From positions 39,740 to 103,739 of the forward strand of contig JAPLDA010000023.1 in the NCBI GenBank assembly GCA_026391945.1: 64,000 bases of DNA. Reading direction: 5' to 3'. How positions within the stretch are numbered: the first letter of the stretch is position 1; each line of letters starts with the position of its first letter. Below are positions 1 through 19,470 of this stretch, piece by piece. The notes under the pieces are model-generated. The model searched no databases. It saw only the letters and a list, made by a program, of their open reading frames with translations, and was not told where the DNA came from. The DNA comes from Bacteroidota bacterium. GTDB taxonomy: Bacteria > Bacteroidota > Bacteroidia > AKYH767-A > 2013-40CM-41-45. The position numbers and the translations under genes are program-made.

Positions 1-2
1 AT

Positions 3-707
3 GGCGGGGTGTTTGGACGTCATAAATGCTTAAAGGCAATGATCAAAATAGCAATCAGAAAAGGAGTGATGACGAAGAACCCCTACGTTGATTTCAAGGT
101 TCGCGGAGCGGAAGGGAAACGAATGTTTCTCCGTTTAGAGGAGGTGAAGAAACTAATGGGGCTTTACTTTTCCGAAGATGAAATCAAGCTACAATGTGTC
201 AGCGAAATGTTTCTGTTTGCCTGCTTTACAGGTTTACGGTTTTCTGACATCATTCAGCTCAGGTGGTCAAATATTGATTTGCTGAGAAGAACTCTTGAGA
301 TTGATATGATGAAAACGAATAAGCCCATTCAGTTGCCTTTGATTGAACCGGCAATGAAAATTCTAAATCAGAGGAAATCGCAATCGGGTGAAGCATCAGA
401 GGAGGTGTTTAAAACTATCTGTAATCAATATGTTAACCGGAGGTTGAAAGACCTGATGAAGAAAGCAGAAATCCAAAAGCAAATCACTTTTCATTGTGCC
501 AGACACACCTTTGCCTGCAACCACATTGAATCTCAAACACACATGCTGGTTCTGAAAGATTTGCTTGGTCACTCAAATGTTGCTCAAACAGAAATTTACG
601 CCAAGACATTAAACGTACAGATGATCAATGCGATGAAGGCATTAGAAAACCAATATTCAAACAAACTAAATACACCTCCACACAAACTAAGGGTTGTAAA
701 TGAATAA
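3..707 (+). CDS. Tyrosine recombinase/integrase, C-terminal catalytic domain (5' truncated by window edge)
   Basis: Frame open to the window start; motifs TGLRFSDIIQLRW, HCARHTFA, LLGHSNVAQTEIYAKT match the R...HxxR...H...Y catalytic pattern of Bacteroidota tyrosine recombinases. Confidence 0.93.
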   Translation, partial: GGVFGRHKCLKAMIKIAIRKGVMTKNPYVDFKVRGAEGKRMFLRLEEVKKLMGLYFSEDEIKLQCVSEMFLFACFTGLRFSDIIQLRWSNIDLLRRTLEIDMMKTNKPIQLPLIEPAMKILNQRKSQSGEASEEVFKTICNQYVNRRLKDLMKKAEIQKQITFHCARHTFACNHIESQTHMLVLKDLLGHSNVAQTEIYAKTLNVQMINAMKALENQYSNKLNTPPHKLRVVNE

Positions 708-747
708 AAGGAAATAATCAGGTTCAGGAATAATAGGAAATCACCCC

Positions 748-1314
748 ATGACAAACACACGCTTTATTACCAAATGGAATGCGCTTCAACTGATCGAAGA
801 TCGGTTGACGTTATTAAAAAAGGCCATTCTGACATTGTATGTAAACAAAGAGTTGGTTTTGTTCCTTGATAAATTCATCAGGTCTATATCAGATCAAAAT
901 GAAAAGAGGTTGATTCTTCTGTATATAAAAAAAACGATCAATCAGTTCCCAAGGAGGCTTCCGCAAGACTACGTCATGGCATTTGAAGAAGAGTTGTTAC
1001 TGAACTCGGAAAAATTCCTGGAGGAACAAAGCGAATACGATCCGAGCAATTGGGTTGACATGGAGCTTGATTTCATTTTCCAAAAAACACACCTCAACCT
1101 TAACGAAGTTGCTTTGAAGCAAATCCACTCCAGTGAGAAGACTCTCGAGAAAGAATTGCTCACCATGAATGAAGTGTTGGCTTTGCTTAAGATCAGCAAG
1201 GCAACATTGGACAGAAGAAGATCGGAAGGAATGCCGTGTACTAAAAAGGGGAAGAAAATCTATTTTAAGAAAACGGAAATTTCGAATTGGTTAAACAAGA
1301 AAGACGGTCAATGA
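748..1314 (+). CDS. Helix-turn-helix (excisionase/MerR-like) DNA-binding protein
   Basis: C-terminal LTMNEVLALLKISKATLDRRRSEGMPCTKKGKKIYFKKTEISNWLNKK is a typical HTH_17/excisionase-like module; directly downstream of the integrase. Confidence 0.8.
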   Translation: MTNTRFITKWNALQLIEDRLTLLKKAILTLYVNKELVLFLDKFIRSISDQNEKRLILLYIKKTINQFPRRLPQDYVMAFEEELLLNSEKFLEEQSEYDPSNWVDMELDFIFQKTHLNLNEVALKQIHSSEKTLEKELLTMNEVLALLKISKATLDRRRSEGMPCTKKGKKIYFKKTEISNWLNKKDGQ

Positions 1315-1315
1315 A

Positions 1316-2500
1316 ATGGTAGCTGAAGACAAAACAAATTTATTCTTCAAACTTTGGTATAAAATTCTCCCTGATGAGAAGCTTACTGATCTCTCTAAAT
1401 TATTGCTGCATGAAATTTTATATTTCATCATCTTCGGAAGCAATCAAGATTACTGCTTCGCCACCAACGACCACCTTGCTAATAGATTAAATAAGCACAG
1501 CAAAACAATAAGCAAAGGGATAACCAAACTAGTCAACACTGGATATCTGAGGCGGGAGTTAGACCGGGAGGGTGTAATGGTATCGGGGAGAAGGTTAATC
1601 CCTGTTTGGGAAAAACTGGGTATTAGCGAAAACGCTAATAATAATATAAATAATACTTTATTAGATAATAATATTACTATGGATAAAGAAGATAAGATAA
1701 ATAATAAATTTATTAATATTATACTTAACGAAAACGCTAACCCATCCAGCGATACATACTACGAGGAGTTATTCGGAATTGGTGATCAAGGCATGAACTT
1801 CTATTTCTATAACATGGCAGTCGAATTAAAATCCGAATTCCCGGAATTTCACAGGTTAAAAATAGCAAACATTCTACATAATGCCTTCGATTATCGTCAG
1901 AGTAGCAAAACGAAAGGATATAAACTACTTATAAAAAAAATGGGTACGAAATTCCTTCATATATTAGTTAAACATTGCAGCAAAAATTTAAAAAGTGAGC
2001 CCCATGAAGTACCTAAATTCCCCTCCAGCGGTAATCAATATTATGATACCATGAAGATCGCTTCAATACTGAAGAAAAACTTCCTTCATCTTTACACGGA
2101 GCCTTCGATTGGATTCAAAAAATCAAGTTCTAATTGGGGTAGTCTCAGTACTGAATTGGAAATTATTAACACCGCAGATTACTATCAAATTTCTGTAAAT
2201 CGAGAATGTCGTGTCATGGCTGTTATACACAGAATTGAGGAAAGAAAGGACAAGAGTGGGAAGGGGTATTTTGCCAATATTTATTTTAGCTCAGAACGTA
2301 AACCGCCTTCATCATATCTCGGTTATTACATTGCTGTTATTGATGCAGATTCTTATATGAAAATAAGGTTGTTTTTGAAAACATTAATTGGAAAGGAGGT
2401 GGTTATGCAGGGACAAAAAGCATGGAGCGGATACCATAAAAAAGAGATATTGAAAAGCTTGGCAAACAAACCATTCCTAATGAGCCCAACCATCAGATGA
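1316..2500 (+). CDS. Replication-initiator-like / winged-HTH protein of a mobile element
   Basis: N-terminal wHTH-like region (FATNDHLANRLNKHSKTISKGITKLVNTGYLRRE); follows integrase and excisionase genes; internal AT-rich low-complexity stretch. Confidence 0.5.
   Translation: MVAEDKTNLFFKLWYKILPDEKLTDLSKLLLHEILYFIIFGSNQDYCFATNDHLANRLNKHSKTISKGITKLVNTGYLRRELDREGVMVSGRRLIPVWEKLGISENANNNINNTLLDNNITMDKEDKINNKFINIILNENANPSSDTYYEELFGIGDQGMNFYFYNMAVELKSEFPEFHRLKIANILHNAFDYRQSSKTKGYKLLIKKMGTKFLHILVKHCSKNLKSEPHEVPKFPSSGNQYYDTMKIASILKKNFLHLYTEPSIGFKKSSSNWGSLSTELEIINTADYYQISVNRECRVMAVIHRIEERKDKSGKGYFANIYFSSERKPPSSYLGYYIAVIDADSYMKIRLFLKTLIGKEVVMQGQKAWSGYHKKEILKSLANKPFLMSPTIR
1621..1740. repeat. Two copies of a short palindromic motif flanking a very AT-rich segment (possible origin/iteron-like site)
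   Basis: TATTAGCG-AAAA-CGCTAATA at 1621-1640 and TTAACG-AAAA-CGCTAA at 1725-1740; CGAAAACGCTAA repeated exactly 102 bp apart; nearly all A/T between. Confidence 0.55.
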
Positions 2501-2698
2501 AAAACAGACGCAAAAATCTTGCGTTTCTGTCTGGCAAATCATTCGGTTGATTTAGGACTGTTTTCACTTCAATCATCTGCGAGGAAGCAAAAAGTCTACT
2601 TAGAAAAAGTTGAGGGCTTTATTGAACGTTCCGAATATTTCCATACTTTGGGTAATCTTTTGGGAATTTTATGTTAAAGCGAGTTCCGTTAATTGAAT

Positions 2699-2716
2699 GT
2701 CAGCAGCAATGCTGAC
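2699..2716. other. Perfect 7-bp stem with GCAA (GNRA) tetraloop upstream of the DUF4062-LOTUS gene
   Basis: GTCAGCA-GCAA-TGCTGAC. Confidence 0.5.
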
Positions 2717-2775
2717 GCTTCGATTGAACGACAATGCAGATTTTTAATTGACAACAATAAATAAACAAAATAATT

Positions 2776-3645
2776 ATGGCTTTTGACGCAAAAGTTTTCA
2801 GAGTTCTAGTTGCTTCTCCAGTTGATGTTGGCGAGGAGAGAAATGTAATTCCAGAAATCGTAAATGAATGGAATGCGGTTAATGCATTTGGCGCTAAGGT
2901 CATTATTATGCCTGTTAAATGGGAAACTCATTCTGCACCATTATTAGGGGGACGACCTCAAGAAATTATTAATGAACAGTTAGTAAAAGATTGTGATTTG
3001 CTTGTTGGAGTATTTTGGACAAGAATCGGAACGAACACAGGCATTTCAGTAAGCGGGACAGCAGAAGAGATTGAACAATTTGTTGAATTGAAAAAACCAG
3101 TAATGTTATATTTTTCCCAATCGCCAATTGACCCAGATAGAATTGAAATAGACCAATTCACTATTCTTAAAAACTTCAAAGAGAAAATGCGGCTGAAAGG
3201 TTTAACAGAAACTTATGCCAATATTCATGACTTCAGACAAAAATTTACACGGCAATTTAGTATTAACATTGGAAATATTTTATCACCGCCTTCTCCTATT
3301 ACTAAAGCTGAATCTCCAAAAACAACAACCACAAAGGTTGGCAAGAAATCTCATTTAACTGCAAAACCAATTGTCATTAATCCAATTGGGACAGCACACG
3401 AAAAATTAACCCCTGAAAAAGTTGACGAGTATTTGATAAAGACCGTTCAAGCAGTTTCAAATCACGATGGCTGGGCAGGCATTGCAGCCGTTGGCCATTA
3501 TTTACAAACATTCACTCCAGTTAACTATCACGATTTTGGTTTTCCAAAACTTAAAGGATTTCTAAAGTCAAGAAAATTATTTGAGTTTAAAGATGTAAAA
3601 GAACACCCGATGCTAAAAGCTCTACCAACAGTAACTAAGAGCTAA
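2776..3645 (+). CDS. DUF4062 (TIR-like) domain protein with C-terminal OST-HTH/LOTUS-like domain
   Basis: N-term FRVLVASPVDVGEERNVIPEIVNEWN...LVKDCDLLVGVFWTRIGT resembles DUF4062; C-term LIKTVQAVSNHDGWAGIAAVGHYLQTFTPVNYHDFGFPKLKGFLKSRKLFEF resembles OST-HTH/LOTUS. Confidence 0.7.
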   Translation: MAFDAKVFRVLVASPVDVGEERNVIPEIVNEWNAVNAFGAKVIIMPVKWETHSAPLLGGRPQEIINEQLVKDCDLLVGVFWTRIGTNTGISVSGTAEEIEQFVELKKPVMLYFSQSPIDPDRIEIDQFTILKNFKEKMRLKGLTETYANIHDFRQKFTRQFSINIGNILSPPSPITKAESPKTTTTKVGKKSHLTAKPIVINPIGTAHEKLTPEKVDEYLIKTVQAVSNHDGWAGIAAVGHYLQTFTPVNYHDFGFPKLKGFLKSRKLFEFKDVKEHPMLKALPTVTKS

Positions 3646-3688
3646 AAAATTATACATCCATAAATTATTTAATTTTTATTCGAAGAAT

Positions 3689-4486
3689 ATGAAACAAGTA
3701 AAACCAATTATTGCAGTTCTTTCTATAACACTTTTAGTGTTTTTTCTTAATAACTGCTCAATCAAATCTAAGCGAAAAGGTAAAAATGCTTGGAGCATTC
3801 AAAGATTAAAAGGGAATGTGCAATCCTTCCAAAGTGTAAAGTATGATGGTCAAGAAAAATTTGGCGAACCCATCAAAGCGAGCGCAACTGATTTTGAAAA
3901 AATAACCTTTAACAAAGAAGGTAATATGCTCGAAAGTGAGGAATATACAAATGACAAAAGCACTTACTATAAGAAGGTGATGAAATATGATTCAATCGGA
4001 CAAAATATCGAAACAAATTTGTATAAATTAGACGGCAGTTTAGCGAGAAAATTTCTTTACGACCATGATAGTAACGGTAATACTATTGAGCAAAATATTT
4101 TTGAACCGAATGGAACGCTTTCCGATAAATACAAATTTATTTATGATGAAAACGGAAACGAACTTGAATCAACTTTTTATCACTCAGACGGAACGCTCAA
4201 ATCGAAACTCATCACAAAATATGATGGTCAAGGTAATGCAATAGAAATGTCCTCTTACTCCTCTAACAGAACGCTTGATAATAGAATAATATCAACCTAT
4301 GATGAAAAGGGCAATCCAATTGCAGAAGATTCATATAATGAAAATGGAGAAGTAATCATGAAAGTAAATTATAAATATGAATTTGATGGTAAAGGTAATT
4401 GGACAAAGCGAATAGAAACAGCGTCTATTAAACCGTTTGACTCAAATATAATATGGATTGAAGAGAGGGATATAAAATATTATTAA
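3689..4486 (+). CDS. Lipoprotein with degenerate YD/Rhs-like YDxxGNxxE repeats
   Basis: N-terminal hydrophobic segment ending LNNCS (lipobox-like); repeated YDxxGN...E units. Confidence 0.6.
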   Translation: MKQVKPIIAVLSITLLVFFLNNCSIKSKRKGKNAWSIQRLKGNVQSFQSVKYDGQEKFGEPIKASATDFEKITFNKEGNMLESEEYTNDKSTYYKKVMKYDSIGQNIETNLYKLDGSLARKFLYDHDSNGNTIEQNIFEPNGTLSDKYKFIYDENGNELESTFYHSDGTLKSKLITKYDGQGNAIEMSSYSSNRTLDNRIISTYDEKGNPIAEDSYNENGEVIMKVNYKYEFDGKGNWTKRIETASIKPFDSNIIWIEERDIKYY

Positions 4487-4663
4487 TCTATTTTCATTAA
4501 TAACAATTGCCGACGACATCAAATTAAAAAGAAGCACGTGCCGCTAACAAGAAATGTGGTTAAGCGAATTGGCCTTTAACATAAAATGTATCGTAACTTG
4601 CGTGCATTTAAACCTTCAAAAATTATTTTTTAATTTCTACATCCTTATTAACTATTTAAGACT

Positions 4664-5527
4664 ATGGGCTCCTTCAAATACAAATTCTACGATTTATTTA
4701 ACCCAACATTGACAGCGTTTCATTCACTAGGAGGTTCTGCCTCAGTTTCCGAAATAGAAGATTTTGTAATTGAAAACATGAACCTTTCAGATGATGAGGT
4801 CAATGATATTCATAGGGGAACAACCACCAAACTAAGTTATCGTCTAAGGTGGGCAAGGAATTATTTGAAGAATTATGGGCTCTTGGAAAATAGCAGCCGA
4901 GGCATTTGGGCTTTGACTAGCATTGGATTAAAAACGGTTGAAGTAAACCCAAATGTGGTCACAAAGTTTGTTCGGGACAAAAACAAGAAAAAAAGAGATA
5001 TCAAACCGCTTGAAATAGAAAAAGATAATAATGAAAACGACTTAGAGTTGGATTCATACGACTCCGATTCTTGGAAGGAGGAGGCATTAGATATAATAAA
5101 AAAAATTACTGCTTCCGGCTTTGAAAGGTTGTGTCAACGGTTGTTAAGGGAATTAGGATTTAAAAATGTAGAGGTTACTGGTAAACCAAATGACGGAGGG
5201 ATTGACGGCAAGGGCATTCTTCGTCTCGGGGGAATTTTATCGTTTCATGTAGTGTTTCAAGCGAAAAGATATAAAGACACCGTTGGATCAGAGATCATTA
5301 GAAATTTTAGAGGTTCCCTAAGTGCTAAAATTGATAAAGGTTTAATTATTAGTACAGGACGTTTTACATTAGAAGCTAAAAAAGAAGCTCAACGAGACGG
5401 TGCAATACCAATTGATTTAATTGATGGTGATGAATTGGTTGAAAAACTAAAGGAGTTAAAATTGGGTTTAAGTATAGAATTGATTGAAAAAATATTCGTC
5501 GATCCTAAATGGTTTCAAGAAATCTAA
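4664..5527 (+). CDS. mrr: Mrr-type restriction endonuclease
   Basis: N-terminal wHTH plus Mrr_cat-like FERLCQRLLRELGFKNVEVTGKPNDGGIDGKG...FHVVFQAKRYKDTVGSEIIRNFRGSL (D...QAK). Confidence 0.88.
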   Translation: MGSFKYKFYDLFNPTLTAFHSLGGSASVSEIEDFVIENMNLSDDEVNDIHRGTTTKLSYRLRWARNYLKNYGLLENSSRGIWALTSIGLKTVEVNPNVVTKFVRDKNKKKRDIKPLEIEKDNNENDLELDSYDSDSWKEEALDIIKKITASGFERLCQRLLRELGFKNVEVTGKPNDGGIDGKGILRLGGILSFHVVFQAKRYKDTVGSEIIRNFRGSLSAKIDKGLIISTGRFTLEAKKEAQRDGAIPIDLIDGDELVEKLKELKLGLSIELIEKIFVDPKWFQEI

Positions 5528-5847
5528 GGGGTTTATATTCAAGAACGATGGGTAGTAACGATAAATATCTGAAAGCCTGTTTGGAATAGATACGTTTATG
5601 CAAGTTACAAGTAGAGATCTCTTTGGAATCGGTTGATTAAAAAAATTTCGTTCTTGTTTTGTAAATCGTTCAGTTGATGTTTCGGATGTTTTCAATTTAA
5701 TCACCTACGAGAATGCAAAAGAATTGGTTCCCCGACAAAAGTTTTAATCAAATATCTCCGAATTAGCGATGATTTATTTACGAACTTAGCCAATGAAAAA
5801 ATGAAACAACAACGTATGTAAGAAAACAAAATTGATATAAATAATTC

Positions 5848-5999
5848 ATAGCGTTAGCTATATCCGTACTCTCAAAACGACCAGGTTTACAGTACTTCAA
5901 GGATATAGACTGATGTCCACCGAACGCGTGGGCTTAGTCTATTTTGAAGTAGGGTACTGGTCGTACCTGAGAGTCAGGTAGGCTACTGTCCCACGCTAT
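5848..5999. ncRNA. Long imperfect hairpin: putative structured RNA or DNA element
   Basis: Paired arms read by eye: 5848-5854/5993-5999, 5855-5860/5979-5985, 5868-5874/5968-5974, 5877-5884/5957-5964, 5894-5900/5944-5950, 5905-5911/5936-5942; apical CCAC/GTGG stem. Confidence 0.5.
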
Positions 6000-6049
6000 T
6001 TTTTTGTAACAAGGTTTTGCGGGACGGGAACCTCCAAAACTCATAAAGA

Positions 6050-6436
6050 ATGAAAAAAGCATTATTAATCCTTGCAATGATTTGTTCTGTTAAAATAGCC
6101 CAATCACAAATCTTTTATGGAACAAAAGTCGAGGTGGGTATGAGAAAGAATGGTGAATATTATTCCCCCTTGGGAAAGCGCGATGAGAAATTTAGAATTT
6201 CATTTTCACTTCCTTCAAAGAAAATATTCATTGAGTCAAATGATATTGAAATGACAGTTGATAATGCAGAAGAAATTTCATCTGGAGGAGGAGAATCTGT
6301 TTACACTGGGTGTTTTAACTTCGATGATGCAAAAGAAAAAGACAAGTCCCCATATTGTAATTGTTATGTATATCGCAATGAGAAATATATTATCTTGAAG
6401 CGTGTTGGAATAGAAACTACTTTCTATTTAAAATGA
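6050..6436 (+). CDS. Small exported hypothetical protein
   Basis: Signal peptide MKKALLILAMICSVKIAQSQ; no family recognised. Confidence 0.55.
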   Translation: MKKALLILAMICSVKIAQSQIFYGTKVEVGMRKNGEYYSPLGKRDEKFRISFSLPSKKIFIESNDIEMTVDNAEEISSGGGESVYTGCFNFDDAKEKDKSPYCNCYVYRNEKYIILKRVGIETTFYLK

Positions 6437-6681
6437 AAGTGCCTTTGAAAATCCAAGTATGTGATTAAACAAACACTGACCGAAAAATCATGAATCAGAG
6501 CTTGCCTTTTTCGTATCAGCTCAAAAGAGTTGTGGAGTTACTGCCAAAAGCTTTGCTTTTAAGCTTGAGAAACACCATAGCTGAGTATTTCCCCAAGAAT
6601 TGGTCAATCATCCACAGAACATGATTTAAATTGACCGAAAGAAACAGAAAGTCGAAGATTGCTTGGGGCAAATCGAATCCC

Positions 6682-6714
6682 GTCTGAGCCCCTTGCTTCC
6701 CATCTATATTTTTG
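6682..6714 (+). promoter_or_regulatory. Bacteroidota-type promoter upstream of hsdR
   Basis: CTTG at 6682-6685, 21-nt spacer, TATTTTTG (TAnnTTTG) at 6707-6714; 30 nt before the ATG at 6745. Confidence 0.5.
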
Positions 6715-6744
6715 CATACTTTTAAGAACTATAATTGGGGTTAA

Positions 6745-9258
6745 ATGGCGGAGGCAAAAGCAAGAATAAAAATCAACAAGTTGTTGGAAGAAGCTGGTTG
6801 GCTATTCTTTTCAGAGAATGGCAAGCCCGCCAACATTGTTTTGGAGAGCAACGCCAAAATAACACAACAGCAACTTGATGAGTTTGGCGACAACTTTGAA
6901 AAAACCACCAATGGATTCATTGACTACCTGCTGCTCGATGACAAGGGCTTTCCATACATCGTATTGGAAGCAAAGAAAGAAGAAGTCAATCCCCTTGCTG
7001 CAAAGGAACAAGCCAGAAAATATGCCAATGCTCAAAAATGCCGCTTTGTAATACTCTCAAACGGCAACCAACATTATCTGTGGGACTTACAGAGAGGGAA
7101 CCCAAACCTCATTTCAAAATTTCCAACACCGGAAACAGTTGGTGCTTATACTTCTTTCAATCCCAATCCTCAAAGCCTGATTAACGAAGCTGTAAAAGAA
7201 GATTACATCGTTGTAACGCAAAAACCCAACTACGACAAAGACCCAAGGTGGATTGAAGAAACACAACGCAAAAGCTACTTGGATGAAAACAAGCTTCGCT
7301 TGTTGCGGAAGTATCAGGTGAAAGCCGTTGAAAAAATTCAGGAAGAAGTGAAGGGTGGCAAAGACCGCTTTCTATTTGAGATGGCAACAGGTACAGGAAA
7401 GACATTGACAGCAGCAGCCGTCATCAAATTGTTTCTGCGAACCGGCAATGCCAGACGTGTTTTGTTTCTGGTTGATCGGCTGGAATTGGAAGACCAAGCT
7501 GACAAAGCATTCAAAGAGTATTTGAGAAATGATTATCAATGCTGCATATACAAGGAGAACAGAGATGATTGGAGAAAGAATGAAATCGTTGTTTCAACAG
7601 TTCAGTCATTTCTTTTCAAGAACAAATACAAACGGATATTTTCGCCCACAGATTTTGATCTGGTAATTTCTGACGAAGCACACCGTAGCATTGGTGGAAA
7701 CAGCAGAGCGGTGTTTGAATATTTCATTGGTTACAAATTAGGGCTGACAGCTACACCGAAAGATTATCTCAAGAAGATTGACCCTGCAAAACTAAGTGAG
7801 AAAGACCCAAGAGAATTGGAGCGAAGAATGTTGCTTGATACTTACACGACCTTTGGCTGTGCGGACGGCAAACCAACATTCCAATATAGCCTGTTACATA
7901 GTGTAAAAGACGGTTTCCTTGTGAATCCAATTGTTGCTGATGCCAGAACAGAAATTACAACACAACTGTTGTCTGATGAAGGTTATAGTGTATTGACAAC
8001 AAACGAAGAAGGTGAGGATGAAAAAGAATCATTTTTTCAAAGAGACTTTGAAAAAAAGTTCTTTAGTGAGAAAACAAACAAGATATTCTGTAAAACATTC
8101 TTGGAGAATGCGCTTCGTGATCCTGTTACAGGAGAAACAGGAAAGTCTATTCTGTTTTGTGTAAGTCAGAACCATGCTGCCAAGGTTGCTCAAATACTCA
8201 ATGAATTTGCTGACAAAATGTTTCCGGGTAAGTATCAATCAGACTTTGCTTTGCAGGTAACTTCATTGGTAAAGGATGCACAACAGTTCACAATCAATTT
8301 CACCAATAACAATTTAAGCGGTACAGGAAACTTCAATCCGCTATACAAAACAAGCAAGACAAGGGTTTGCGTAACCGTTGGAATGATGACCACAGGATAT
8401 GATTGCCCTGACCTGTTGAATGTTGGTTTGATGCGCCCCATATTCTCTCCAACAGACTTCATTCAAATCAAAGGTAGAGGAACAAGGAAACATAACTTCC
8501 TGAAAGAACTGCTTGATAAAGAATTAGCAAAGCAGGTATTACAACCAGACAAAAAGAACTTCAAACTCTTTGACTTCTTTGCCAACTGCGAATACTTTGA
8601 AACAGAATTCAACTATGATGAGATTCTGAAACTTCCTCCAAAAGGTGACGGAGAAGGTGGCGGAGGTGGTTACACAACACCCGATACATTTGAAAGCACG
8701 GAACACGATCCTCTGAAAAACTTTACAGAACAAGAGGTTGGGGTACAGGGAATGAAGATTGACAGAATGTATTTCGACCGCTTTGAAGAAACAATCAAAG
8801 ACGATATTGCCGTACAGAAGATGATTGATAAACGGGACATGGAAGGAATTGAACAATACATTTTGCAAAACATCTTTGAGAAACCGGAAGACTTTTACAA
8901 CCTTACCAAATTACAAAATGCTGCCAAGGTTGACAGACGGTTGTCCCTTCGTGAAATCATTGAGAAGATATTCGGAGTGATCCCTTACTTCAAAAGTAAA
9001 GATGAATTGCTGGAAGATGAATTTGAGAAATTTGACAGCCGTTACCTACCTGATGAGCAAATCTTCTCCTATGCAAAAAATTACTTCAAAAGCTACATTA
9101 CAGACAAAGAGTTCCGTGACATTATTGAGAACAAAAACTTCGCCTTGCTGAATACTAATCCAAACGGGGAAGTGTTTCGCAAGCTACCTGCGGAGTTGCG
9201 GAATCTGATCCCACAATACATCAAAGAAAATATATCATTATCACAATTTGCTAATTAA
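6745..9258 (+). CDS. hsdR: Type I restriction endonuclease R subunit (DEAD/DEAH helicase)
   Basis: N-terminal nuclease-like FIDYLLLDDKGFPYIVLEAKKE; Walker A FEMATGTGKTLTAAA; DEAH box VISDEAHRS; GLTATP; QIKGRGTR. Confidence 0.95.
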   Translation: MAEAKARIKINKLLEEAGWLFFSENGKPANIVLESNAKITQQQLDEFGDNFEKTTNGFIDYLLLDDKGFPYIVLEAKKEEVNPLAAKEQARKYANAQKCRFVILSNGNQHYLWDLQRGNPNLISKFPTPETVGAYTSFNPNPQSLINEAVKEDYIVVTQKPNYDKDPRWIEETQRKSYLDENKLRLLRKYQVKAVEKIQEEVKGGKDRFLFEMATGTGKTLTAAAVIKLFLRTGNARRVLFLVDRLELEDQADKAFKEYLRNDYQCCIYKENRDDWRKNEIVVSTVQSFLFKNKYKRIFSPTDFDLVISDEAHRSIGGNSRAVFEYFIGYKLGLTATPKDYLKKIDPAKLSEKDPRELERRMLLDTYTTFGCADGKPTFQYSLLHSVKDGFLVNPIVADARTEITTQLLSDEGYSVLTTNEEGEDEKESFFQRDFEKKFFSEKTNKIFCKTFLENALRDPVTGETGKSILFCVSQNHAAKVAQILNEFADKMFPGKYQSDFALQVTSLVKDAQQFTINFTNNNLSGTGNFNPLYKTSKTRVCVTVGMMTTGYDCPDLLNVGLMRPIFSPTDFIQIKGRGTRKHNFLKELLDKELAKQVLQPDKKNFKLFDFFANCEYFETEFNYDEILKLPPKGDGEGGGGGYTTPDTFESTEHDPLKNFTEQEVGVQGMKIDRMYFDRFEETIKDDIAVQKMIDKRDMEGIEQYILQNIFEKPEDFYNLTKLQNAAKVDRRLSLREIIEKIFGVIPYFKSKDELLEDEFEKFDSRYLPDEQIFSYAKNYFKSYITDKEFRDIIENKNFALLNTNPNGEVFRKLPAELRNLIPQYIKENISLSQFAN

Positions 9259-9260
9259 GT

Positions 9261-10274
9261 ATGCTTTCAATAGTAAGGGATAAGAGTGAAATAAAGAAAT
9301 ACCATGAGGCACTGGGAAGGCTTATGCGCGTACACAGTACAGGAAAACCCAAACCTCTTAAAGCACAAACACGAGGTGGACAATTACTTGTAAGTGCTTA
9401 CCATAACAATCAGAACAACTATTGGTGGTCAAATTCTCTCACTAACAGACACCACAAGTTCAAAAATCTAATAGGACTTGATCCTGATTTTAGCGGCACT
9501 AATCAAATTCTAATTCAAATCAACTATCAAAAGGCGTTCACGAATTTTAGGGAGGCGGCTTTGTGGGCAAGTGATTTACAAGGAAATGTATATTTACTTC
9601 ATAGCGGTCGAATGGGTGGTGGTGTTAGTGGGATCAATGTTGAAAATATTGATAAGCTTTATTCTGGTTCCAGAAGCTGGGTTTCATTTAACAGTGAAGA
9701 ATATGAATACTATACAGTATGTCAATTAAATTCTTCAAGAGCCTATTCACAAATATTATCATTCATCAAACAAATTATTTCTATCAAGGCTGTATTGAAG
9801 GGCGGCGAAAATTCGCATTCCTTGATTCCTTTAGTTGATCGAGGAGTACTAAAAAACTACAGTCCGGAATTTTGGGGTAAGAGAAAAGCGTACTATTGTA
9901 AAGCTCGTATTGAATCTGACAGCGATCATGGATTAATAGTAGATTGTCTGAAAAAGGAGTTAGAAAGCAGAATGAGATTCAAAGGCTGTTTACGTAAAAA
10001 CAAATACATTGATTTAGGTATCGTTCAAAAAAAGCAAGCAAAGTACATTTTTGAAGTAAAGACTTCGATAAACATGCAGGCGATTTATGCTGCAATTGGT
10101 CAGCTGATGCTTCATTCTCATTCTACTAAAAACAATCCTGATAAATATATTGTATTACCCGATCAATTGAATACTTCAATAGAACAAGACATTGCCGCTT
10201 TGGGGATCAATACATTGAGATACAAGTGGAAGAATGAAAAAGCAATCTTTACAAATATTAAAAACCATTTCTAA
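9261..10274 (+). CDS. Hypothetical protein with PD-(D/E)XK nuclease-like C-terminus, inserted in the type I R-M operon
   Basis: C-term YIDLGIVQKKQAKYIFEVKTSINMQAIYAAIGQLMLH fits D-x(n)-EVK plus a GQL helix; 2-nt gap from hsdR and 1-nt overlap with hsdMS. Confidence 0.55.
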   Translation: MLSIVRDKSEIKKYHEALGRLMRVHSTGKPKPLKAQTRGGQLLVSAYHNNQNNYWWSNSLTNRHHKFKNLIGLDPDFSGTNQILIQINYQKAFTNFREAALWASDLQGNVYLLHSGRMGGGVSGINVENIDKLYSGSRSWVSFNSEEYEYYTVCQLNSSRAYSQILSFIKQIISIKAVLKGGENSHSLIPLVDRGVLKNYSPEFWGKRKAYYCKARIESDSDHGLIVDCLKKELESRMRFKGCLRKNKYIDLGIVQKKQAKYIFEVKTSINMQAIYAAIGQLMLHSHSTKNNPDKYIVLPDQLNTSIEQDIAALGINTLRYKWKNEKAIFTNIKNHF

Positions 10275-12757
10275 TGCTTGACAATGAAACCAAAAAAAGA
10301 ATTGATACAGCCCGTGATATTTTAGTGGGTAAAGTTCCCGATCCCAAAAGTCAGGTGGAGCAAATTACAATTGCTCTTATTTACAAGTTCATGGATGATA
10401 TGGACAAGGAGGCTGTTTCGTTTGGGGGGAAGGCAACATTCTTCACAAAAGAATTCAAGAAATATAGTTGGACAAACATCTTTGATACCAAAGTTGGAGG
10501 ACATGAAATGCTCACACTTTATGGTGAAGCAATTGTAAAACTGAATCTGAATCCAAACATACCGCAACTATTTCGTGACATTTTCAAAAATGCTTATTTG
10601 CCATATCGTGACCCTGAAACATTGAAGTTGTTTCTGAAAACAATCAATGAATTCCGTTACGACCACAGTGAAATGTTAGGCGATGCTTTTGAGTATTTGC
10701 TTTCTGTGTTGGGGTCACAAGGCGATGCAGGGCAATTCCGAACACCAAGGCATATCATTGATTTCATTGTAGAGGTATTACAGCCCCAAAAGAATGAAAC
10801 CATCCTTGACCCTGCATGTGGTACAGCGGGATTCCTGATTTCTTCTTACAAACACATTCTGCAAAACAACACCAAGAAGAACAAAGGTGATTTGCTGACA
10901 CCAGATGACCGCAAGAAGATGATGCAGAACTTTGTTGGCTATGATATTTCGCCAGACATGGTGCGTTTGAGTTTGGTGAATCTGTACCTGCATGGCTTCA
11001 CTACACCGAGCATCTACGAATATGATACACTAACAAGTGAAGACAGATGGAGTGAGTATTATGACATAATCTTGGCAAACCCTCCTTTCATGACACCAAA
11101 GGGGGGAATCAAACCACACAAAAAGTTTACGATACAGGCAAACCGGAGTGAAGTATTGTTTGTGGATTACATTGCCGAACACATACACCCAAGCAAAGGC
11201 AGGGCAGGAATTATTGTACCGGAAGGGATCATCTTCCAAAGCGCAACCGCTTACAAAGCATTGCGGAAAATGTTGGTAGATAAAAACATGTTGTATGCAG
11301 TAGTGAGTTTACCAGCGGGTATTTTCAACCCATACAGTGGTGTGAAGACAAGTATTCTTTTGCTTGACAAAACCCTTGCAAAGAAAACAGACAACATTCT
11401 CTTTGTGAAAATCGAAAGTGATGGTTTTGATTTAGGGGCACAGCGCAAAGCAATTGCCCAAAATGATTTGACCGCTTGCTTATACCTATTGCAGCAATAC
11501 AAGCAATCCTTACAAGACAACACAGCCTTTGAAAGCGACAACAAAAATGTTTTCTTAATTGAGAAGAAGGTTATTGGGGCAAAGGACGATTACAACTTAT
11601 CCATTGACAGATACAGGGCCAATGAGATTGTGAATAGGGAAAATGAAATGGTTAGGTTGGATGAAATATTTTCTGAAATCAGAAATGGGAAAAATGTTGA
11701 ACAGTTTGATGAAGTTGGAAAATACAGAGTAACAAGAATTCAAACCATTGCAGATGGAACGGTTAATCTTGAGAAAACCAAATGGACAAATGATGAAGTG
11801 AAAGAAGATGATTTTATGCAAGAGGGGGATATTCTTCTTAGCCATATCAACAGCATTGAGCATTTAGGCAAGTCGGCAATTTTTAAAAATCACTCTGAAA
11901 AAGTTGTTCATGGAATTAACCTCATTCGTTTCAGACCTGATAAAGAAAAAGTAATTCCCGCTTTTATTGCAAGTGTTTTCAAGTCAGAAATATTTATTTC
12001 AACTACCCGGCAGTTTGCACAGAAAGCAGTTAATCAAGCAAGCATTAAGACAACAGATTTAAAGGCCATTGAAATTCCTTTACCTTCTTTAGAAATCCAA
12101 CAACAAATCGTAAGCAAAATAGAATCCTTTCAAAAGATAATTGACGGAGCAAAACAGATTGTGGAAAATTACAAACCACAAATTGATGTTGACCCAAGTT
12201 GGGAAATTGTAAAATTGGGAGATTCAATTACACTGCAAAGAGGATATGATTTACCGAAACAAGATTGGGTTGAAGGAAAATTTCCGATTATTGGTTCAAA
12301 TGGAATTATTGGATTTCACAATTCTTTCAAAGAAAAAGGGCCGGGTGTTGTAACAGGGAGAAGTGGAACTATTGGCAAAGTTCATTTTATTGATTACGAT
12401 TTCTATTGGCCACACAACACCTCTCTTTTTGTGAAAGATTTCAAAGGAAACAACCGGAAGTTTATCAAATATCTGCTTGAGTCTGTTGACTTGAAATCAT
12501 TAGGGGAGAGAACGGCGGCCGTTCCTTCTCTGGATAGAAAAAATGCACACGAAATTTCAATTTCCCTTCCACCAATCAGCGTTCAACAAACAATTGTAAA
12601 CCGAATTGATGAAGAACAGGGATTGGTAAATTCAAACAAGAGGCTTATTGAAATCTTTGAGCAAAAAATCAAAAATGAAATAAATAAGTTATGGCAGGCG
12701 GCACCAAAGGAATATGCAACGCCAGAGGAAAAACTTTCAATAGCAGCAGAGGAATGA
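10274..12757 (+). CDS. hsdM: Type I R-M HsdM-HsdS fusion (N6-adenine methyltransferase plus two-TRD specificity region)
   Basis: MTase motifs LDPACGTAGFLISSYK and ILANPPF; C-terminal half holds two TRD-like segments, each followed by a coiled region (IPLPSLEIQQQIVSKIE, ISLPPISVQQTIVNRIDEE). Confidence 0.92.
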   Translation: MLDNETKKRIDTARDILVGKVPDPKSQVEQITIALIYKFMDDMDKEAVSFGGKATFFTKEFKKYSWTNIFDTKVGGHEMLTLYGEAIVKLNLNPNIPQLFRDIFKNAYLPYRDPETLKLFLKTINEFRYDHSEMLGDAFEYLLSVLGSQGDAGQFRTPRHIIDFIVEVLQPQKNETILDPACGTAGFLISSYKHILQNNTKKNKGDLLTPDDRKKMMQNFVGYDISPDMVRLSLVNLYLHGFTTPSIYEYDTLTSEDRWSEYYDIILANPPFMTPKGGIKPHKKFTIQANRSEVLFVDYIAEHIHPSKGRAGIIVPEGIIFQSATAYKALRKMLVDKNMLYAVVSLPAGIFNPYSGVKTSILLLDKTLAKKTDNILFVKIESDGFDLGAQRKAIAQNDLTACLYLLQQYKQSLQDNTAFESDNKNVFLIEKKVIGAKDDYNLSIDRYRANEIVNRENEMVRLDEIFSEIRNGKNVEQFDEVGKYRVTRIQTIADGTVNLEKTKWTNDEVKEDDFMQEGDILLSHINSIEHLGKSAIFKNHSEKVVHGINLIRFRPDKEKVIPAFIASVFKSEIFISTTRQFAQKAVNQASIKTTDLKAIEIPLPSLEIQQQIVSKIESFQKIIDGAKQIVENYKPQIDVDPSWEIVKLGDSITLQRGYDLPKQDWVEGKFPIIGSNGIIGFHNSFKEKGPGVVTGRSGTIGKVHFIDYDFYWPHNTSLFVKDFKGNNRKFIKYLLESVDLKSLGERTAAVPSLDRKNAHEISISLPPISVQQTIVNRIDEEQGLVNSNKRLIEIFEQKIKNEINKLWQAAPKEYATPEEKLSIAAEE

Positions 12758-15021
12758 TAACCAAAGTAAATAAGATAAAGGATTTTGGGATCTTCAAGAA
12801 TTTCACTTGGGATGTTTCAATCAATCCGTTTAAAAAACGGAATCTGATTTACGGTTGGAATTATTCAGGCAAAACAACATTCTCCAAACTGTTCAACAAT
12901 CTTGACAAGAAACAAAAGATTCATTTTCCATCTTCGGAATACACTTTTGAAATTGAACGCAACACAGAAACATACACACAGGAACAGTTAGCTAACTTTC
13001 CATATTTAGTTAAGGTTTTCAATACTTACTATGTGAAAAGTGTTTTTTCGTGGGATAAAGAAAACCGTGAAGAATTTGAACCGATACTTTTTTTCTTAGG
13101 ATATGAAGCAGGAAACATTCAACCCAAAATTGATTCACTTATTAAGAGATGGAATCCGAAAATAGAAGCAATAAAGAAAAAAAAAGAAGCGATTGTTTCT
13201 GCATTCTCTGATTATGCAAAGGAGAATGGAAAGTTTTCAAAGCAAGCAACAGAAATCAGAAAGTATTTGAACGAGCAACTCAAAAGCAATGAGTTCAACA
13301 AAAGTCATTTCATTGCTTTGGTAGCAGAAGTAAAAACGGATTTAGTCAAACATACTTTAGCCCCTGATAAAGTCACAGGGGTAAAACAACAAGCACTTGC
13401 AACAAATGATTTCCTTGAGCAAGATGATAACTTTGTTTTATCAGAAGCACTAACAACAATCGGAAAAAAAGTAAAAGATGTTTTAGAAGATTCGGCACCA
13501 AGGTCAATTCCATTTCCCGAATTCGATGCTGACGAAAATCTTTTCAACTGGGTTCAAACAGGACTTTACTTACACAAAGATTCTACGAAGTGCAAGTTTT
13601 GCGACAACAATTTAAAAGAGGAAAGAATAAAGTCTTTGAATCAATACTATTCCGAAAAACTTCAAGAAATACAAACTGCAATTCAGAAAATTAGAGAATT
13701 AATTGCAGCAGACGTATTGGGATTGAATTTTGAATTTCAACACGAAAGTAAATTAGCACGACACCTTAGAGATAAATACAAACAAGCAGTTAAGGAATAT
13801 GGAGAACTGAAACAGGAATACAAAAACGAACTTGAAATTTTTACTGCTGACTTAAAGAGAAAAGAAAGCAATTACTTCAATTCAATAACGGCAACGGCAT
13901 ATCAAACTGTTTCTGTAAACACAAAACTACAAAAAGTAATTGCAGTAATTGGAGAACACAATTTGTTTGTCTCAAAGTTTGAAGAAAAAAAGAAGGGGGC
14001 AATTGCTTTAATACTTCGTCATTATGTTGCTGAATATTTGGCGGCAGAAAATTACCTCACACAGGAAAAGGAAAATGAAACTGCCTCTGATTTGGTTAAC
14101 CGTTGTCAAACGAAACTTGAAGAGAACAATGATGGGATAGCACGGCTTGAGGGCCTGTTGAAGAATACAGTTAAAGGACAGGAAGAATTAAATATCTACT
14201 TGAAAATATTTTTGAACCGAGAGGATATTCAAATTGCAATTGAGAAAGACAAGTTTGTTTTAACGAGAGGGGCAAACCCTGCAAGCAATTTAAGCGAAGG
14301 AGAAAAGACAGCAATTGCTTTTGCTTATTTCCTTACTGAATTAAAATCGTTGAAGAAGGAAGGAAAATTGAAAACCACAATCATTTTCTTTGATGACCCA
14401 ATTTCAAGTTTGGATAGCAATCATATTTTTCAAGTACGTTCACTCATTCAGCACTTCTTCAAAGACAAAGGCGATTACTTACAACTTTTTATTTCTACTC
14501 ACAATTTTGAATTCTTTTCTGTTTTGCTTGACAGCAACTTATTTAAGAATGTGAATAGAGCAACCACAAAAGCAGAAGATTGTCCGTTCTATCTTATCAA
14601 TAGAACAATGGCAGACAGTTCTACTATATGTAATTTGCCGAGAACATTAAGAAGTCATAAATCAGAGTATGCTCACATCTTTGCCATACTGAAAGAGTAT
14701 AATGATTCAGCAACCAAAGAAACATTCCAATTCAAAATTCTTTTGCCAAATACACTTAGAAGATTTTTGGAACTCTACACTTTGTTTAAATATCCAAAAG
14801 GGTTTTGTGAGGTTGATGATAGAATGAAAATGGTTTTCTCACCTGATGAAGAAGTATTTCACAACACGAAATTGTATCATTGGTTTTCACATCAAAACCA
14901 ATTTGAAAAAGTTGCACAACATGACGGGAAAATATTTTTGATTGATGAAGCAATTAGTGAAGTGTTACAACACATTGAGGAAAAAGATGAAATGCATTGG
15001 AAAGGATTAACAGAGCTTTGA
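12754..15021 (+). CDS. RloC/PrrC-like (AAA_13) ABC-type ATPase, putative anticodon nuclease
   Basis: Walker A YGWNYSGKTTFSK; signature NLSEGEKTAIAFA; Walker B TTIIFFDDPISSLDS; CKFC zinc-hook-like motif in coiled coil; ATGA overlap with the HsdMS stop, so the start is 12754 rather than 12691. Confidence 0.78.
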   Translation: MITKVNKIKDFGIFKNFTWDVSINPFKKRNLIYGWNYSGKTTFSKLFNNLDKKQKIHFPSSEYTFEIERNTETYTQEQLANFPYLVKVFNTYYVKSVFSWDKENREEFEPILFFLGYEAGNIQPKIDSLIKRWNPKIEAIKKKKEAIVSAFSDYAKENGKFSKQATEIRKYLNEQLKSNEFNKSHFIALVAEVKTDLVKHTLAPDKVTGVKQQALATNDFLEQDDNFVLSEALTTIGKKVKDVLEDSAPRSIPFPEFDADENLFNWVQTGLYLHKDSTKCKFCDNNLKEERIKSLNQYYSEKLQEIQTAIQKIRELIAADVLGLNFEFQHESKLARHLRDKYKQAVKEYGELKQEYKNELEIFTADLKRKESNYFNSITATAYQTVSVNTKLQKVIAVIGEHNLFVSKFEEKKKGAIALILRHYVAEYLAAENYLTQEKENETASDLVNRCQTKLEENNDGIARLEGLLKNTVKGQEELNIYLKIFLNREDIQIAIEKDKFVLTRGANPASNLSEGEKTAIAFAYFLTELKSLKKEGKLKTTIIFFDDPISSLDSNHIFQVRSLIQHFFKDKGDYLQLFISTHNFEFFSVLLDSNLFKNVNRATTKAEDCPFYLINRTMADSSTICNLPRTLRSHKSEYAHIFAILKEYNDSATKETFQFKILLPNTLRRFLELYTLFKYPKGFCEVDDRMKMVFSPDEEVFHNTKLYHWFSHQNQFEKVAQHDGKIFLIDEAISEVLQHIEEKDEMHWKGLTEL

Positions 15022-15196
15022 ACGACTAATTAACATAGCATAGAACCAACTTTCAGTTTCGGTTTTTGAGAAACTACTAAATATTTTCAAACCGTGAGAA
15101 ATATTCAACACTTTTAAGATGAAATTGTGTTACAGCTCTAAATTTCAGCAATTGTTTGGTGACAATACGATCCTAACTCAAACCAACTAACATAAA

Positions 15197-17707
15197 ATGA
15201 ACATTGATACAGATTTCAAATTGGACGACTTGACATTGGTCAAATACCTAAAAAGTATTGACAGTCCCTTCCTTCCAAAAATTCAAGAAGTTTACGAGCA
15301 GGTGAAAGATATTTTGAATAGTCGGGTGCAGCATGTTTTCCCAAAATTTACACTTCATAACACAGGGCACTCTTTCAGAATCATGGAGTATATGAGCAAG
15401 TTGGTTAGTGATTATACCAAACTAAACGAACTTGAAATAACGCTAATGATTTACGCTGCACTTCTACATGACATCGGAATGGCGGTGGGTGAAGAAGATA
15501 TTAACTCTATCAAGTCCGATTCATTTCCTTTTTGCGATGTTAAATTTGCCGCAATGTTAAAGATCGTGGGCAATGACGAAAATTTAGCACTACAGGAGTA
15601 TGTAAGACGAATACATGCTTCTTTATCTGGTAAGTACATTCGTGAAAATCTAAAAGATAAATTAGTGATTCCTAAATTAACAACGCTTGACTTTACAAAG
15701 GAGCTGGCGTTGATCTGTGAGAGCCATACAGAAGATTATGACTGGATTAAGGCCAACCTACGGACAAATGAAGTTAGGGGGGACTATTCTTTCAATCCAC
15801 AGTTCATTGCTTCTGTTTTGCGTTTGGCAGATATTCTCGACATTGATGGGAACAGGACTCCTTATAATCTTTACAAATTGATTTCGCCCAAAGGAACAAG
15901 TGACGAAGAATGGAAACAACATTTTGTAATTTCCAATAATGATAAAATAATCATCAACCAAAAAACACAGCAAAAAAAAATTGTCTTTCATGGTAAGGCT
16001 ACGAATGCAAGTATACATCGAAAACTCCTTGTCTATATTGGTTGGGTAAAAAATGAGCTAACGAATGCTACGGCATTAGTTAATGGTATGGCCGCTCAAT
16101 ATAGTTTGGTTTATGACACGAATCCAGTCGTGAACATTCAAACTGAGGGCTACACCTTTTCTGATTACAAAATGACATTGGAGTTTAGGGCAATTAGTTC
16201 TTTGCTTATGGGAGAAAAGATATATGGCAGTAAATCCTTAGGGCTTAGAGAGCTTATTCAAAATTCAATCGACTCTTGTAGAATAAGGCAAGAAACAGAA
16301 GCGCTTAAACTTGAGTTCGGACAAGATGCATATCAACCTAAAATCAAAGTGATTTTAGACAAAGAAAAAAATCAAGCAATAATTAAGGACAATGGAACCG
16401 GAATGTCAATGGACATTATCAAAAAACACTTCTTAAACATTGGCGTTTCTTATTACAACTCTACTGACTTTTTACTTAAAGATTTTGAATACAAACCAAT
16501 AGGAAATTTTGGTATTGGCTTTCTTTCTTGCTTTATGCTTTCTGACGAGGTGAAGGTTGTGACTAGACATTACAAGTCCAAGAATAAATACCTAATAGAA
16601 CTTGAAAAGGGGAATGAGTGGACATCACTTACGGAATCGGAAGATGTAGTCTTTGATGGCACGGAGGTGGTTTTAAACTATTCGAATTTTATTGCTGTTT
16701 TTGAAAACAGCCCACAAAAAGTAAATGAGTTTTTAAATAAATATTTTCTCACCGATGGAATAGACTTTGAATTGATTGACAAATCTCCCAAACAGATTTC
16801 AAAAATTAGCAATCTAATTAATTTATCAACCCCTCCCGAAAAAGGTGTAATCAAAATTGAGTTTCGGGATTATCTAAAAGATATCGAAGGATACGCTTTA
16901 ATAAAGAACAAAAACAACTTCATCAAAAAATTCGAGGAAATTGATTTTACTGGAACATTATATAAATATAATGACGAAGAAGGATTCTTAGAGGTAACAG
17001 ATTTTTCATGCCTCCAAATTGATGATTATATTAACGGAAATGAAATCACATACCTAACAATTCCCTTAGTAACCTTAGATAAAGAAGATGAATTTCTCAG
17101 TGGAATGAAATTTACAGATGACGATGTAAATCAGGTAATAGAAAAAATGGATAGAGATCTTTCCTGGATTTCCATCATAGTTCCAAAGCAATACCAAGAA
17201 TCTTTGTCTGATGAAACAATAGATGAAAGGAATTTTGTTTTTGATAAGCTGGGGTTTGATGATTTAGCGGAGATTGGCCATTCCCCTTCCTGTAAAACAA
17301 AATCTTTTGTAAAGACAATCACACTATTTGAGGGCCGAAAAAACGATTTGTATTTGCCATTTGATAAAACCGACATAGATGTTGGGCTCTGGTATTACAA
17401 TAGTAAAAAACGAAAGGAGCTTTTCATGAGAAGTGTATTGATTCAGGACTTTAGATTCAACATTGCAATTTCTGCATCTATTTTTGAAATAAACACAATA
17501 GTTGCTAACATCAATTCGAGAAAACTCATTCCTGATGTGTCCAGAAATAATGTTGACATAAAAGCAAGGGAAGTAATCAATTACTCGATAGGAAAGGCCA
17601 TTCATATTGGTGCATGTGACGTTCTTAGTTTAGGGTTAGATGAAAAGACAACCTTGAAAAATTTCATAGATACATTTTATGGGCAAAAGAGTGAATATGA
17701 AAAGTAA
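15197..17707 (+). CDS. HD-domain plus GHKL (Hsp90-like) ATPase protein
   Basis: HD: LHNTGHSFRIMEYM...ALLHDIGMAV...CESHTEDY...LRLADILDIDG. GHKL: LRELIQNSIDSCR, IIKDNGTGMS, PIGNFGIGFLSCF. Confidence 0.85.
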   Translation: MNIDTDFKLDDLTLVKYLKSIDSPFLPKIQEVYEQVKDILNSRVQHVFPKFTLHNTGHSFRIMEYMSKLVSDYTKLNELEITLMIYAALLHDIGMAVGEEDINSIKSDSFPFCDVKFAAMLKIVGNDENLALQEYVRRIHASLSGKYIRENLKDKLVIPKLTTLDFTKELALICESHTEDYDWIKANLRTNEVRGDYSFNPQFIASVLRLADILDIDGNRTPYNLYKLISPKGTSDEEWKQHFVISNNDKIIINQKTQQKKIVFHGKATNASIHRKLLVYIGWVKNELTNATALVNGMAAQYSLVYDTNPVVNIQTEGYTFSDYKMTLEFRAISSLLMGEKIYGSKSLGLRELIQNSIDSCRIRQETEALKLEFGQDAYQPKIKVILDKEKNQAIIKDNGTGMSMDIIKKHFLNIGVSYYNSTDFLLKDFEYKPIGNFGIGFLSCFMLSDEVKVVTRHYKSKNKYLIELEKGNEWTSLTESEDVVFDGTEVVLNYSNFIAVFENSPQKVNEFLNKYFLTDGIDFELIDKSPKQISKISNLINLSTPPEKGVIKIEFRDYLKDIEGYALIKNKNNFIKKFEEIDFTGTLYKYNDEEGFLEVTDFSCLQIDDYINGNEITYLTIPLVTLDKEDEFLSGMKFTDDDVNQVIEKMDRDLSWISIIVPKQYQESLSDETIDERNFVFDKLGFDDLAEIGHSPSCKTKSFVKTITLFEGRKNDLYLPFDKTDIDVGLWYYNSKKRKELFMRSVLIQDFRFNIAISASIFEINTIVANINSRKLIPDVSRNNVDIKAREVINYSIGKAIHIGACDVLSLGLDEKTTLKNFIDTFYGQKSEYEK

Positions 17708-17740
17708 GCTTTTCGCACCTTTTGTTTTTATAACACATTA

Positions 17741-19058: not shown

Positions 19059-19096
19059 AAAAGGGAGACATTACAGAGGCTATGATACCAAAAATG

Positions 19097-19308: not shown

Positions 19309-19437
19309 TGACTTTGTGAATTTCTAATTTCCCCCGGAATTTCCCCTATTGACATATTGCCCCTTGAAAGCACTACAGAATGGGTAAAGGTTTAACCCCA
19401 GGAGGGGGAGCGTAAAAAGACGTTGAATGACGTCGGG

Positions 19438-19470
19438 TGAGGTCTCAGAAATTCTGAGACCTCATTTTTT
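19438..19470 (+). terminator. Rho-independent terminator
   Basis: TGAGGTCTCAGA-AAT-TCTGAGACCTCA (12-bp perfect stem) followed by TTTTTTA. Confidence 0.85.

What the first reader, a model, noticed from the sequence alone, without database searches (positions are those of the whole stretch)
2776..3645. TIR-like DUF4062 domain fused to a LOTUS/OST-HTH domain
Seen: N-terminal DUF4062-like sequence and a C-terminal segment DGWAGIAAVGHYL...YHDFGFPKLKGFLKSRKLFEF that reads as an OST-HTH/LOTUS domain. LOTUS domains bind RNA (G-rich/G4) and in bacteria usually pair with NYN nucleases. Inference: an RNA-sensing module wired to a TIR-like effector, encoded by a single gene.
Basis: partly seen in the sequence, partly recalled or inferred. 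Interest (0 to 1): 0.72.

Follow-up and report, generated by a model that had tools for sequence, protein, structure and literature searches.

The report
TIR-like NADase fused to LOTUS domain
A single gene in a bacterial defence island joins a probable NAD+-destroying domain to a LOTUS domain of a kind known to bind RNA, which suggests a self-contained infection sensor and killer switch, though its trigger is not shown.

Summary
ORF 2776-3645 (289 aa) has a DUF4062 N-terminus and a C-terminal OST-HTH/LOTUS domain above Pfam's cut-off. A second, independent copy of the same fusion lies in another Bacteroidota genome (67% identical). There both domains are under purifying selection and the linker is free to vary, so the fusion is real and kept. 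The N-terminus belongs to the TIR/nucleoside-deoxyribosyltransferase superfamily. Glu98 is invariant in 42 relatives and aligns with the catalytic Glu of both. A May 2026 preprint shows that DUF4062 is a TIR-like NADase ('Swarozyc' defence) whose C-terminal winged-helix AUX domain senses phage portal. Ordinary ~280-aa relatives, including an E. coli one, carry a different C-terminal module; here a LOTUS domain takes its place. The gene sits in a 21.5-kb island inserted at tRNA-Asn (integrase, perfect 73-bp repeats), beside Mrr, type I restriction and a PDC-S06 ATPase. Best reading: a one-gene abortive-infection NADase with a LOTUS sensor. An RNA trigger is plausible, since LOTUS domains, bacterial ones included, bind G4 RNA, but it is untested; a phage-protein trigger is nearly as likely. 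The fusion is rare: no third clear case in the Bacteroidota sampled. New variant of a known kind.

The parts
2776..3645 (+). DUF4062-LOTUS gene, 289 aa
   Evidence: ORF; Pfam; PADLOC; second fusion L036
2776..3273 (+). DUF4062 TIR/NDT-like domain, residues 1-166, probable NADase effector
   Evidence: PDC-S60 E 2e-30; profile-profile match to NDT and TIR above 150 shuffles each; low-confidence fold model whose top PDB hits are NDT enzymes, then TIR domains
3067..3069 (+). Codon of Glu98, predicted catalytic glutamate (SGTAEEIE motif)
   Evidence: E98 in 42 of 42 DUF4062 domains; aligns with the catalytic Glu of NDT (GTxFE) and TIR
3274..3393 (+). Linker, residues 167-206, poorly conserved and predicted disordered
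   Evidence: 36% identity to L036 against 78% and 62% in the domains; pLDDT below 50
3394..3597 (+). OST-HTH/LOTUS winged-helix domain, residues 207-274, probable sensor
   Evidence: Pfam E 6e-7; helix-helix-helix-strand-strand model, block means of pLDDT 56-84; Foldseek best hit 2kpm; profile to PDB 2kpm E 7e-16 and 2kzv E 9e-13
9..707 (+). C-terminal part of the island's tyrosine integrase (full 402-aa gene L051:9239-10447)
   Evidence: Phage_integrase, SAM-like and Arm-DNA-bind_5 domains
748..1314 (+). HTH_17 excisionase-like protein of the island
   Evidence: Pfam
1316..2500 (+). HTH_36/DnaD-like protein, probably replication or regulation of the element
   Evidence: Pfam
4664..5527 (+). 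Mrr-type (type IV) restriction endonuclease, neighbour defence gene
   Evidence: Mrr_cat E 1e-27, Mrr_N E 4e-19; mREase_IV
6745..9258 (+). Type I restriction subunit HsdR
   Evidence: ResIII, HSDR_N; REase_I E 2e-55
10274..12757 (+). Fused type I HsdM-HsdS
   Evidence: N6_Mtase plus two Methylase_S stretches; MTase_I E 3e-99
12691..15021 (+). AAA_13 ATPase, PDC-S06 / PrrC-like, defence candidate
   Evidence: PDC-S06 E 9e-126; AAA_13 E 2e-106
15197..17707 (+). HD-CE plus HSP90-like ATPase protein
   Evidence: HD-CE E 4e-53, HATPase_c_3
19398..19470 (+). Right 73-bp direct repeat (att site) of the island; the left copy is C50:37682-37754, about 2 kb before the window, overlapping the 3' end of tRNA-Asn
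   Evidence: Exact repeat; tRNA-Asn GTT at L051:7622-7696

Best explanation
A one-gene abortive-infection defence protein, carried as cargo on a tRNA-Asn integrative island. The N-terminal DUF4062 domain is a TIR-like NADase with Glu98 as catalytic residue, held inactive in the resting cell. The C-terminal LOTUS winged helix stands where related proteins carry their sensor (AUX) domain. When LOTUS binds an infection-related ligand, several copies are gathered together, the TIR-like domains align, NAD+ is hydrolysed and the cell stops growing or dies before phage are released. The ligand is most likely G-rich or structured RNA made or exposed during infection; a phage protein is the close second. 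Shown here: the two domains, the conserved Glu, purifying selection on both domains, the island context. Inferred: NADase activity, activation by clustering, phage trigger, nature of the ligand.
For: OST-HTH and DUF4062/PDC-S60 matches; second fusion in L036 with both domains under purifying selection; E98 invariant in 42 domains and aligned with the NDT and TIR catalytic Glu, no shuffle of 150 reaching the score; fold hits NDT, then TIR, including Thoeris EcThsB2; LOTUS winged helix matching 2kpm; defence island with Mrr, type I restriction and PDC-S06, integrase, 73-bp repeats and tRNA-Asn. Literature: DUF4062 proteins are TIR-like NADases in anti-phage defence and need the catalytic Glu and the auxiliary domain (PMC13174449); LOTUS domains, bacterial ones included, bind G4 RNA (Ding 2020 as reported in PMC12247748).
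Against: No experiment on this protein. The Pfam DUF4062 score is below its cut-off and the N-terminal model is low confidence (mean pLDDT 44). Human NWD1, NWD2 and NPHP3 carry DUF4062 but showed no NADase activity (PMC13174449), so the fold does not guarantee activity. The L036 copy shows no defence genes around it on its short contig. No RNA ligand is known.
Confidence: 0.6

Rival explanations
1. Same NADase effector, but LOTUS is a protein sensor: it binds a phage structural protein such as portal, as the winged-helix AUX domain of KpSwz does, and RNA plays no part.
For: The only bacterial DUF4062 system with a known trigger uses a C-terminal HTH/winged domain to grip phage portal (PMC13174449). 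LOTUS also binds proteins in animals (Oskar with Vasa; PMC12247748). Ordinary relatives have a winged-helix-like C-terminus in the same place.
Against: Profile comparison finds no relation between this LOTUS and the common C-terminal module of relatives, although the KpSwz sequence itself was not available. Bacterial LOTUS domains are otherwise joined to NYN RNases.
Confidence: 0.3
2. LOTUS only dimerises or localises the enzyme (for example on nucleoid or ribosomes) and another partner senses infection.
For: The fly Oskar LOTUS dimerises in vitro (PMC12247748); TIR NADases need oligomerisation (PMC13174449).
Against: The cricket LOTUS is monomeric (same paper). No conserved partner gene: neighbours of the two fusions differ.
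Confidence: 0.15
3. The N-terminus is not an NADase but an NDT-like N-glycosidase acting on nucleotides or nucleosides, guided by LOTUS to RNA.
For: Closest solved folds of the model are nucleoside deoxyribosyltransferases, with MilB CMP N-glycosidase and DNPH1 further down; the profile match to NDT (score 37.6) is stronger than to TIR (28.2).
Against: Tested DUF4062 members (KpSwz, TEP1) hydrolyse NAD+ or NADP+ (PMC13174449). TIR and NDT share this fold and the Glu, so the preference says little.
Confidence: 0.12

Closest known systems
Swarozyc / KpSwz (DUF4062 TIR-like NADase anti-phage system, PMC13174449)
   Same: Single-gene DUF4062 protein with a C-terminal accessory domain, conserved Glu, defence-island setting
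   Different: C-terminal domain is LOTUS; whether KpSwz's portal-gripping AUX is related could not be compared directly; trigger unknown; activity untested
Common ~280-aa DUF4062 plus winged-helix-like proteins (E. coli WP_000331919.1; L002, L003, L006, L007, L034)
   Same: DUF4062 domain 47% identical to the E. coli protein; same length and layout
   Different: Their C-terminal module shows no detectable relation to LOTUS
Bacterial NYN/LK-nuclease-LOTUS proteins (L048-L050; Anantharaman 2010, PMC2848206)
   Same: LOTUS domain with the DGWA...VG..L...P...G..KL...FE pattern
   Different: Effector is an NYN nuclease, not DUF4062; widespread in Bacteroidota
PADLOC PDC-S60 phage defence candidate
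   Same: Residues 6-182 match the start of the model at E 2e-30
   Different: PDC-S60 model is 906 positions long with a large different C-terminal part

Membership tests
DUF4062 TIR-like domain family | Sequence match to DUF4062 / homologous domain | tested here: met
   PDC-S60 E 2e-30; 47% identity to an E. coli member; Pfam 18.1 bits is below the 24.7 cut-off, but close relatives pass it
DUF4062 TIR-like domain family | Conserved catalytic Glu | tested here: met
   E98 in 42 of 42, aligned with NDT and TIR Glu
DUF4062 TIR-like domain family | TIR-like fold | tested here: inconclusive
   Model of low confidence, yet best PDB hits are NDT then TIR domains; profile match to TIR exceeds all shuffles
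Swarozyc defence system | Winged AUX domain like that of KpSwz | tested here: inconclusive
Swarozyc defence system | Defence-island location | tested here: met
   21.5-kb tRNA-Asn island with Mrr, type I restriction, PDC-S06
Swarozyc defence system | NAD+ depletion and protection from phage, portal activation | not testable with these tools
   Needs bench work
OST-HTH/LOTUS domain | Match above the family cut-off and winged-helix fold | tested here: met
   29.6 against 23.8 bits; model plus 2kpm as top fold hit
OST-HTH/LOTUS domain | Binding of G-rich or G4 RNA | not testable with these tools
   Reported for other LOTUS domains including bacterial ones (PMC12247748 citing Ding 2020)
Canonical TIR (Pfam TIR/TIR_2) | Match to a TIR family model | tested here: not met
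   No TIR family among Pfam matches at E up to 0.1

The most novel reading that the evidence does not exclude
A bacterial TIR-like NADase switched on directly by RNA through a fused LOTUS domain: a one-gene, RNA-sensing suicide switch against phage.
Probability: 0.35. Interest if true: 0.78.

Novelty: new variant of a known kind. Interest (0 to 1): 0.52.

Why it matters
DUF4062 proteins were shown in 2026 to be NADases in phage defence and in the human vault, but among bacterial ones the trigger is known in one case only. A protein with a LOTUS domain, known from germ-granule proteins and RNases, in the sensor's place is small enough to test whether RNA can directly switch on a TIR-like enzyme. 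It would also give the bacterial LOTUS a role beyond RNA decay and widen the set of signals that bacterial immunity can read.

Tried and rejected
Chance or annotation artefact: rejected by the second fusion and its selection pattern. A phage-borne gene: no match in phage records. LOTUS as a diverged form of the common C-terminal module: hhalign found nothing (probability 0.2%). Canonical TIR: no Pfam TIR match. A KpSwz structure in PDB by sequence: none found with close relatives. Third fusion: none at high confidence in samples of 398, 43, 392 and 399 genomes, which overlap, or in plasmids. L103 (455 aa, distant DUF4062) shows a sub-threshold OST-HTH match (E 4e-4, 20.6 against 23.8 bits) that my own LOTUS profile does not confirm; left open. 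The full-length AlphaFold model was poor in the N-terminus, and a domain-only run with three sequences improved it little. Ding 2020 and the preprint's supplement could not be read.

Full report
Pfam finds OST-HTH/LOTUS at residues 219-272 (E 6e-7, above the curated cut-off) and DUF4062 at 9-100 (E 0.003, below it). PADLOC's PDC-S60 model covers residues 6-182 at E 2e-30, and the best plasmid relatives, several annotated DUF4062, share 42-50% identity with the first ~165-220 residues. The start codon agrees with that of most full-length relatives.

The fusion is not an accident. A scan of one genome per species in GTDB found a second one, in a Bacteroidota MAG (L036, JAKQEA010000028.1), 67% identical overall, with OST-HTH at E 2.5e-10. 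Between the two, the DUF4062 part is 78% identical, LOTUS 62%, the linker 36% and the tail 29%. Non-synonymous against synonymous differences per site are 0.125/0.76, 0.23/0.59 and 0.45/1.0 for DUF4062, LOTUS and linker (the synonymous sites are near saturation). Both domains are therefore kept by selection. The neighbours differ: in L036 the gene lies between an outer-membrane-protein-like gene and a trypsin-like protease gene, with no defence gene seen on an 8-kb contig (these names by eye).

The N-terminus. In 42 DUF4062 domains gathered here, Glu98 is invariant and Glu97 nearly so, along with D17, W49, Q62, W81, G85, G94 and Y112. Profile-profile alignment with nucleoside deoxyribosyltransferases (NDT) and with TIR_2 domains from Bacteroidota gives scores of 37.6 and 28.2. 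The best of 150 column shuffles was 22.0 and 19.3, and the reversed controls gave 11.9 and 15.0. In both alignments E98 falls on the Glu known (from general knowledge of these enzymes) to be catalytic. A domain-only AlphaFold model from three sequences is of low confidence (mean pLDDT 44), yet its best PDB matches are NDT enzymes, followed lower down by MilB, the plant TIR domains L6 and RUN1, and the Thoeris TIR protein EcThsB2. With a weak model this is support, not proof.

The C-terminus. Even with two sequences AlphaFold builds residues 210-285 as helix-helix-helix-strand-strand (block means of 56-84 pLDDT). The top Foldseek match is 2kpm, the bacterial protein used to define OST-HTH (PMC2848206). 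A five-sequence LOTUS profile finds 2kpm at E 7e-16 and 2kzv at E 9e-13 and nothing else in the PDB. In 99 sampled Bacteroidota genomes LOTUS hits fall mostly in ~250-aa frames, and the three read in full are NYN-LOTUS.

How it differs from its relatives. Ordinary ~280-aa DUF4062 proteins (L002, L003, L006, L007, L034, and an E. coli island protein, L058) have a different C-terminal module with winged-helix character (weak HTH_45 match; sequences). hhalign sees no relation between it and LOTUS (probability 0.2%). Other relatives carry a formylglycine-enzyme-like domain, a methyltransferase or much longer tails. DUF4062 is thus a portable effector with exchangeable C-termini.

Where it lives. 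A perfect 73-bp direct repeat occurs twice in the genome, at contig positions 37682-37754 and 59137-59209, the right copy at window 19398-19470. The left copy starts inside the 3' end of a tRNA-Asn gene. Between them lie a tyrosine integrase, two HTH proteins, the DUF4062-LOTUS gene, an RHS-like lipoprotein, an Mrr nuclease, HsdR, an unknown protein, an HsdM-HsdS fusion, a PDC-S06/AAA_13 ATPase, an HD-CE/HSP90-like ATPase, a transglycosylase and a small protein of nucleotidyltransferase look. This is a 21.5-kb defence island on an integrative element.

What is known. A May 2026 preprint (PMC13174449) shows that DUF4062 is a TIR-like NADase family, that KpSwz ('Swarozyc') protects E. coli through its catalytic Glu and its auxiliary domain, and that this auxiliary domain, of HTH/winged fold, binds phage portal and gathers the enzyme. 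The main text does not mention LOTUS or OST-HTH; its supplement, which lists architectures, was not readable here, so prior notice of this fusion there cannot be excluded. LOTUS domains from animals, plants and bacteria bind G4 RNA by ELISA (Ding 2020, as reported in PMC12247748), and an OST-HTH has been noted in another bacterial conflict system, fused to S1 domains (PMC8195603).

Mechanism. The best reading is a single-gene NADase whose LOTUS domain takes the sensor's place. By analogy with KpSwz, ligand binding would cluster the protein, align the TIR-like domains and trigger NAD+ loss. Which ligand is open: RNA is favoured slightly by what LOTUS domains do elsewhere, a phage protein by what the nearest characterised system does. 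NADase activity itself is not certain, since three of four human DUF4062 proteins were inactive in vitro in that preprint. Rarity (two sure cases) means the family may be young or thinly sampled.

Verdict. Observation confirmed; interpretation partly supported; a new variant (LOTUS in the sensor's place) of a recently described kind.

Noticed in passing
window 1-19470 with about 2 kb upstream (G000:C50:37682-59209): 21.5-kb integrative defence island at tRNA-Asn with perfect 73-bp direct repeats that include a terminator-like hairpin.
   Followed up: yes
window 15197-19058: Possible uncharacterised three-gene cassette: HD-CE/HSP90-like ATPase, transglycosylase, and a small protein with nucleotidyltransferase-like GS...D.D motif (by eye; no Pfam match; phrog_32008 E 3e-9).
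   Followed up: partly
window 10274-15021: HsdM and HsdS are fused in one type I protein with two specificity stretches, followed by an overlapping PDC-S06/AAA_13 ATPase.
   Followed up: partly
L103 1492-2850: Distant DUF4062 protein with a sub-threshold OST-HTH match (E 4e-4): possible second, independent DUF4062-LOTUS coupling.
   Followed up: partly
L032 5001-5573: A prophage in a Salmonella plasmid record carries a DUF4062 gene right after portal and terminase genes, short and next to an IS3 transposase.
   Followed up: no
L035 2642-5578: On a Caulobacter plasmid a canonical TIR gene ends one base before a DUF4062 gene starts, suggesting a TIR plus DUF4062 operon.
   Followed up: no
L018 and L097: DUF4062 joined to a formylglycine-enzyme-like domain (L018, by eye) and to a methyltransferase domain (L097, Pfam).
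   Followed up: no
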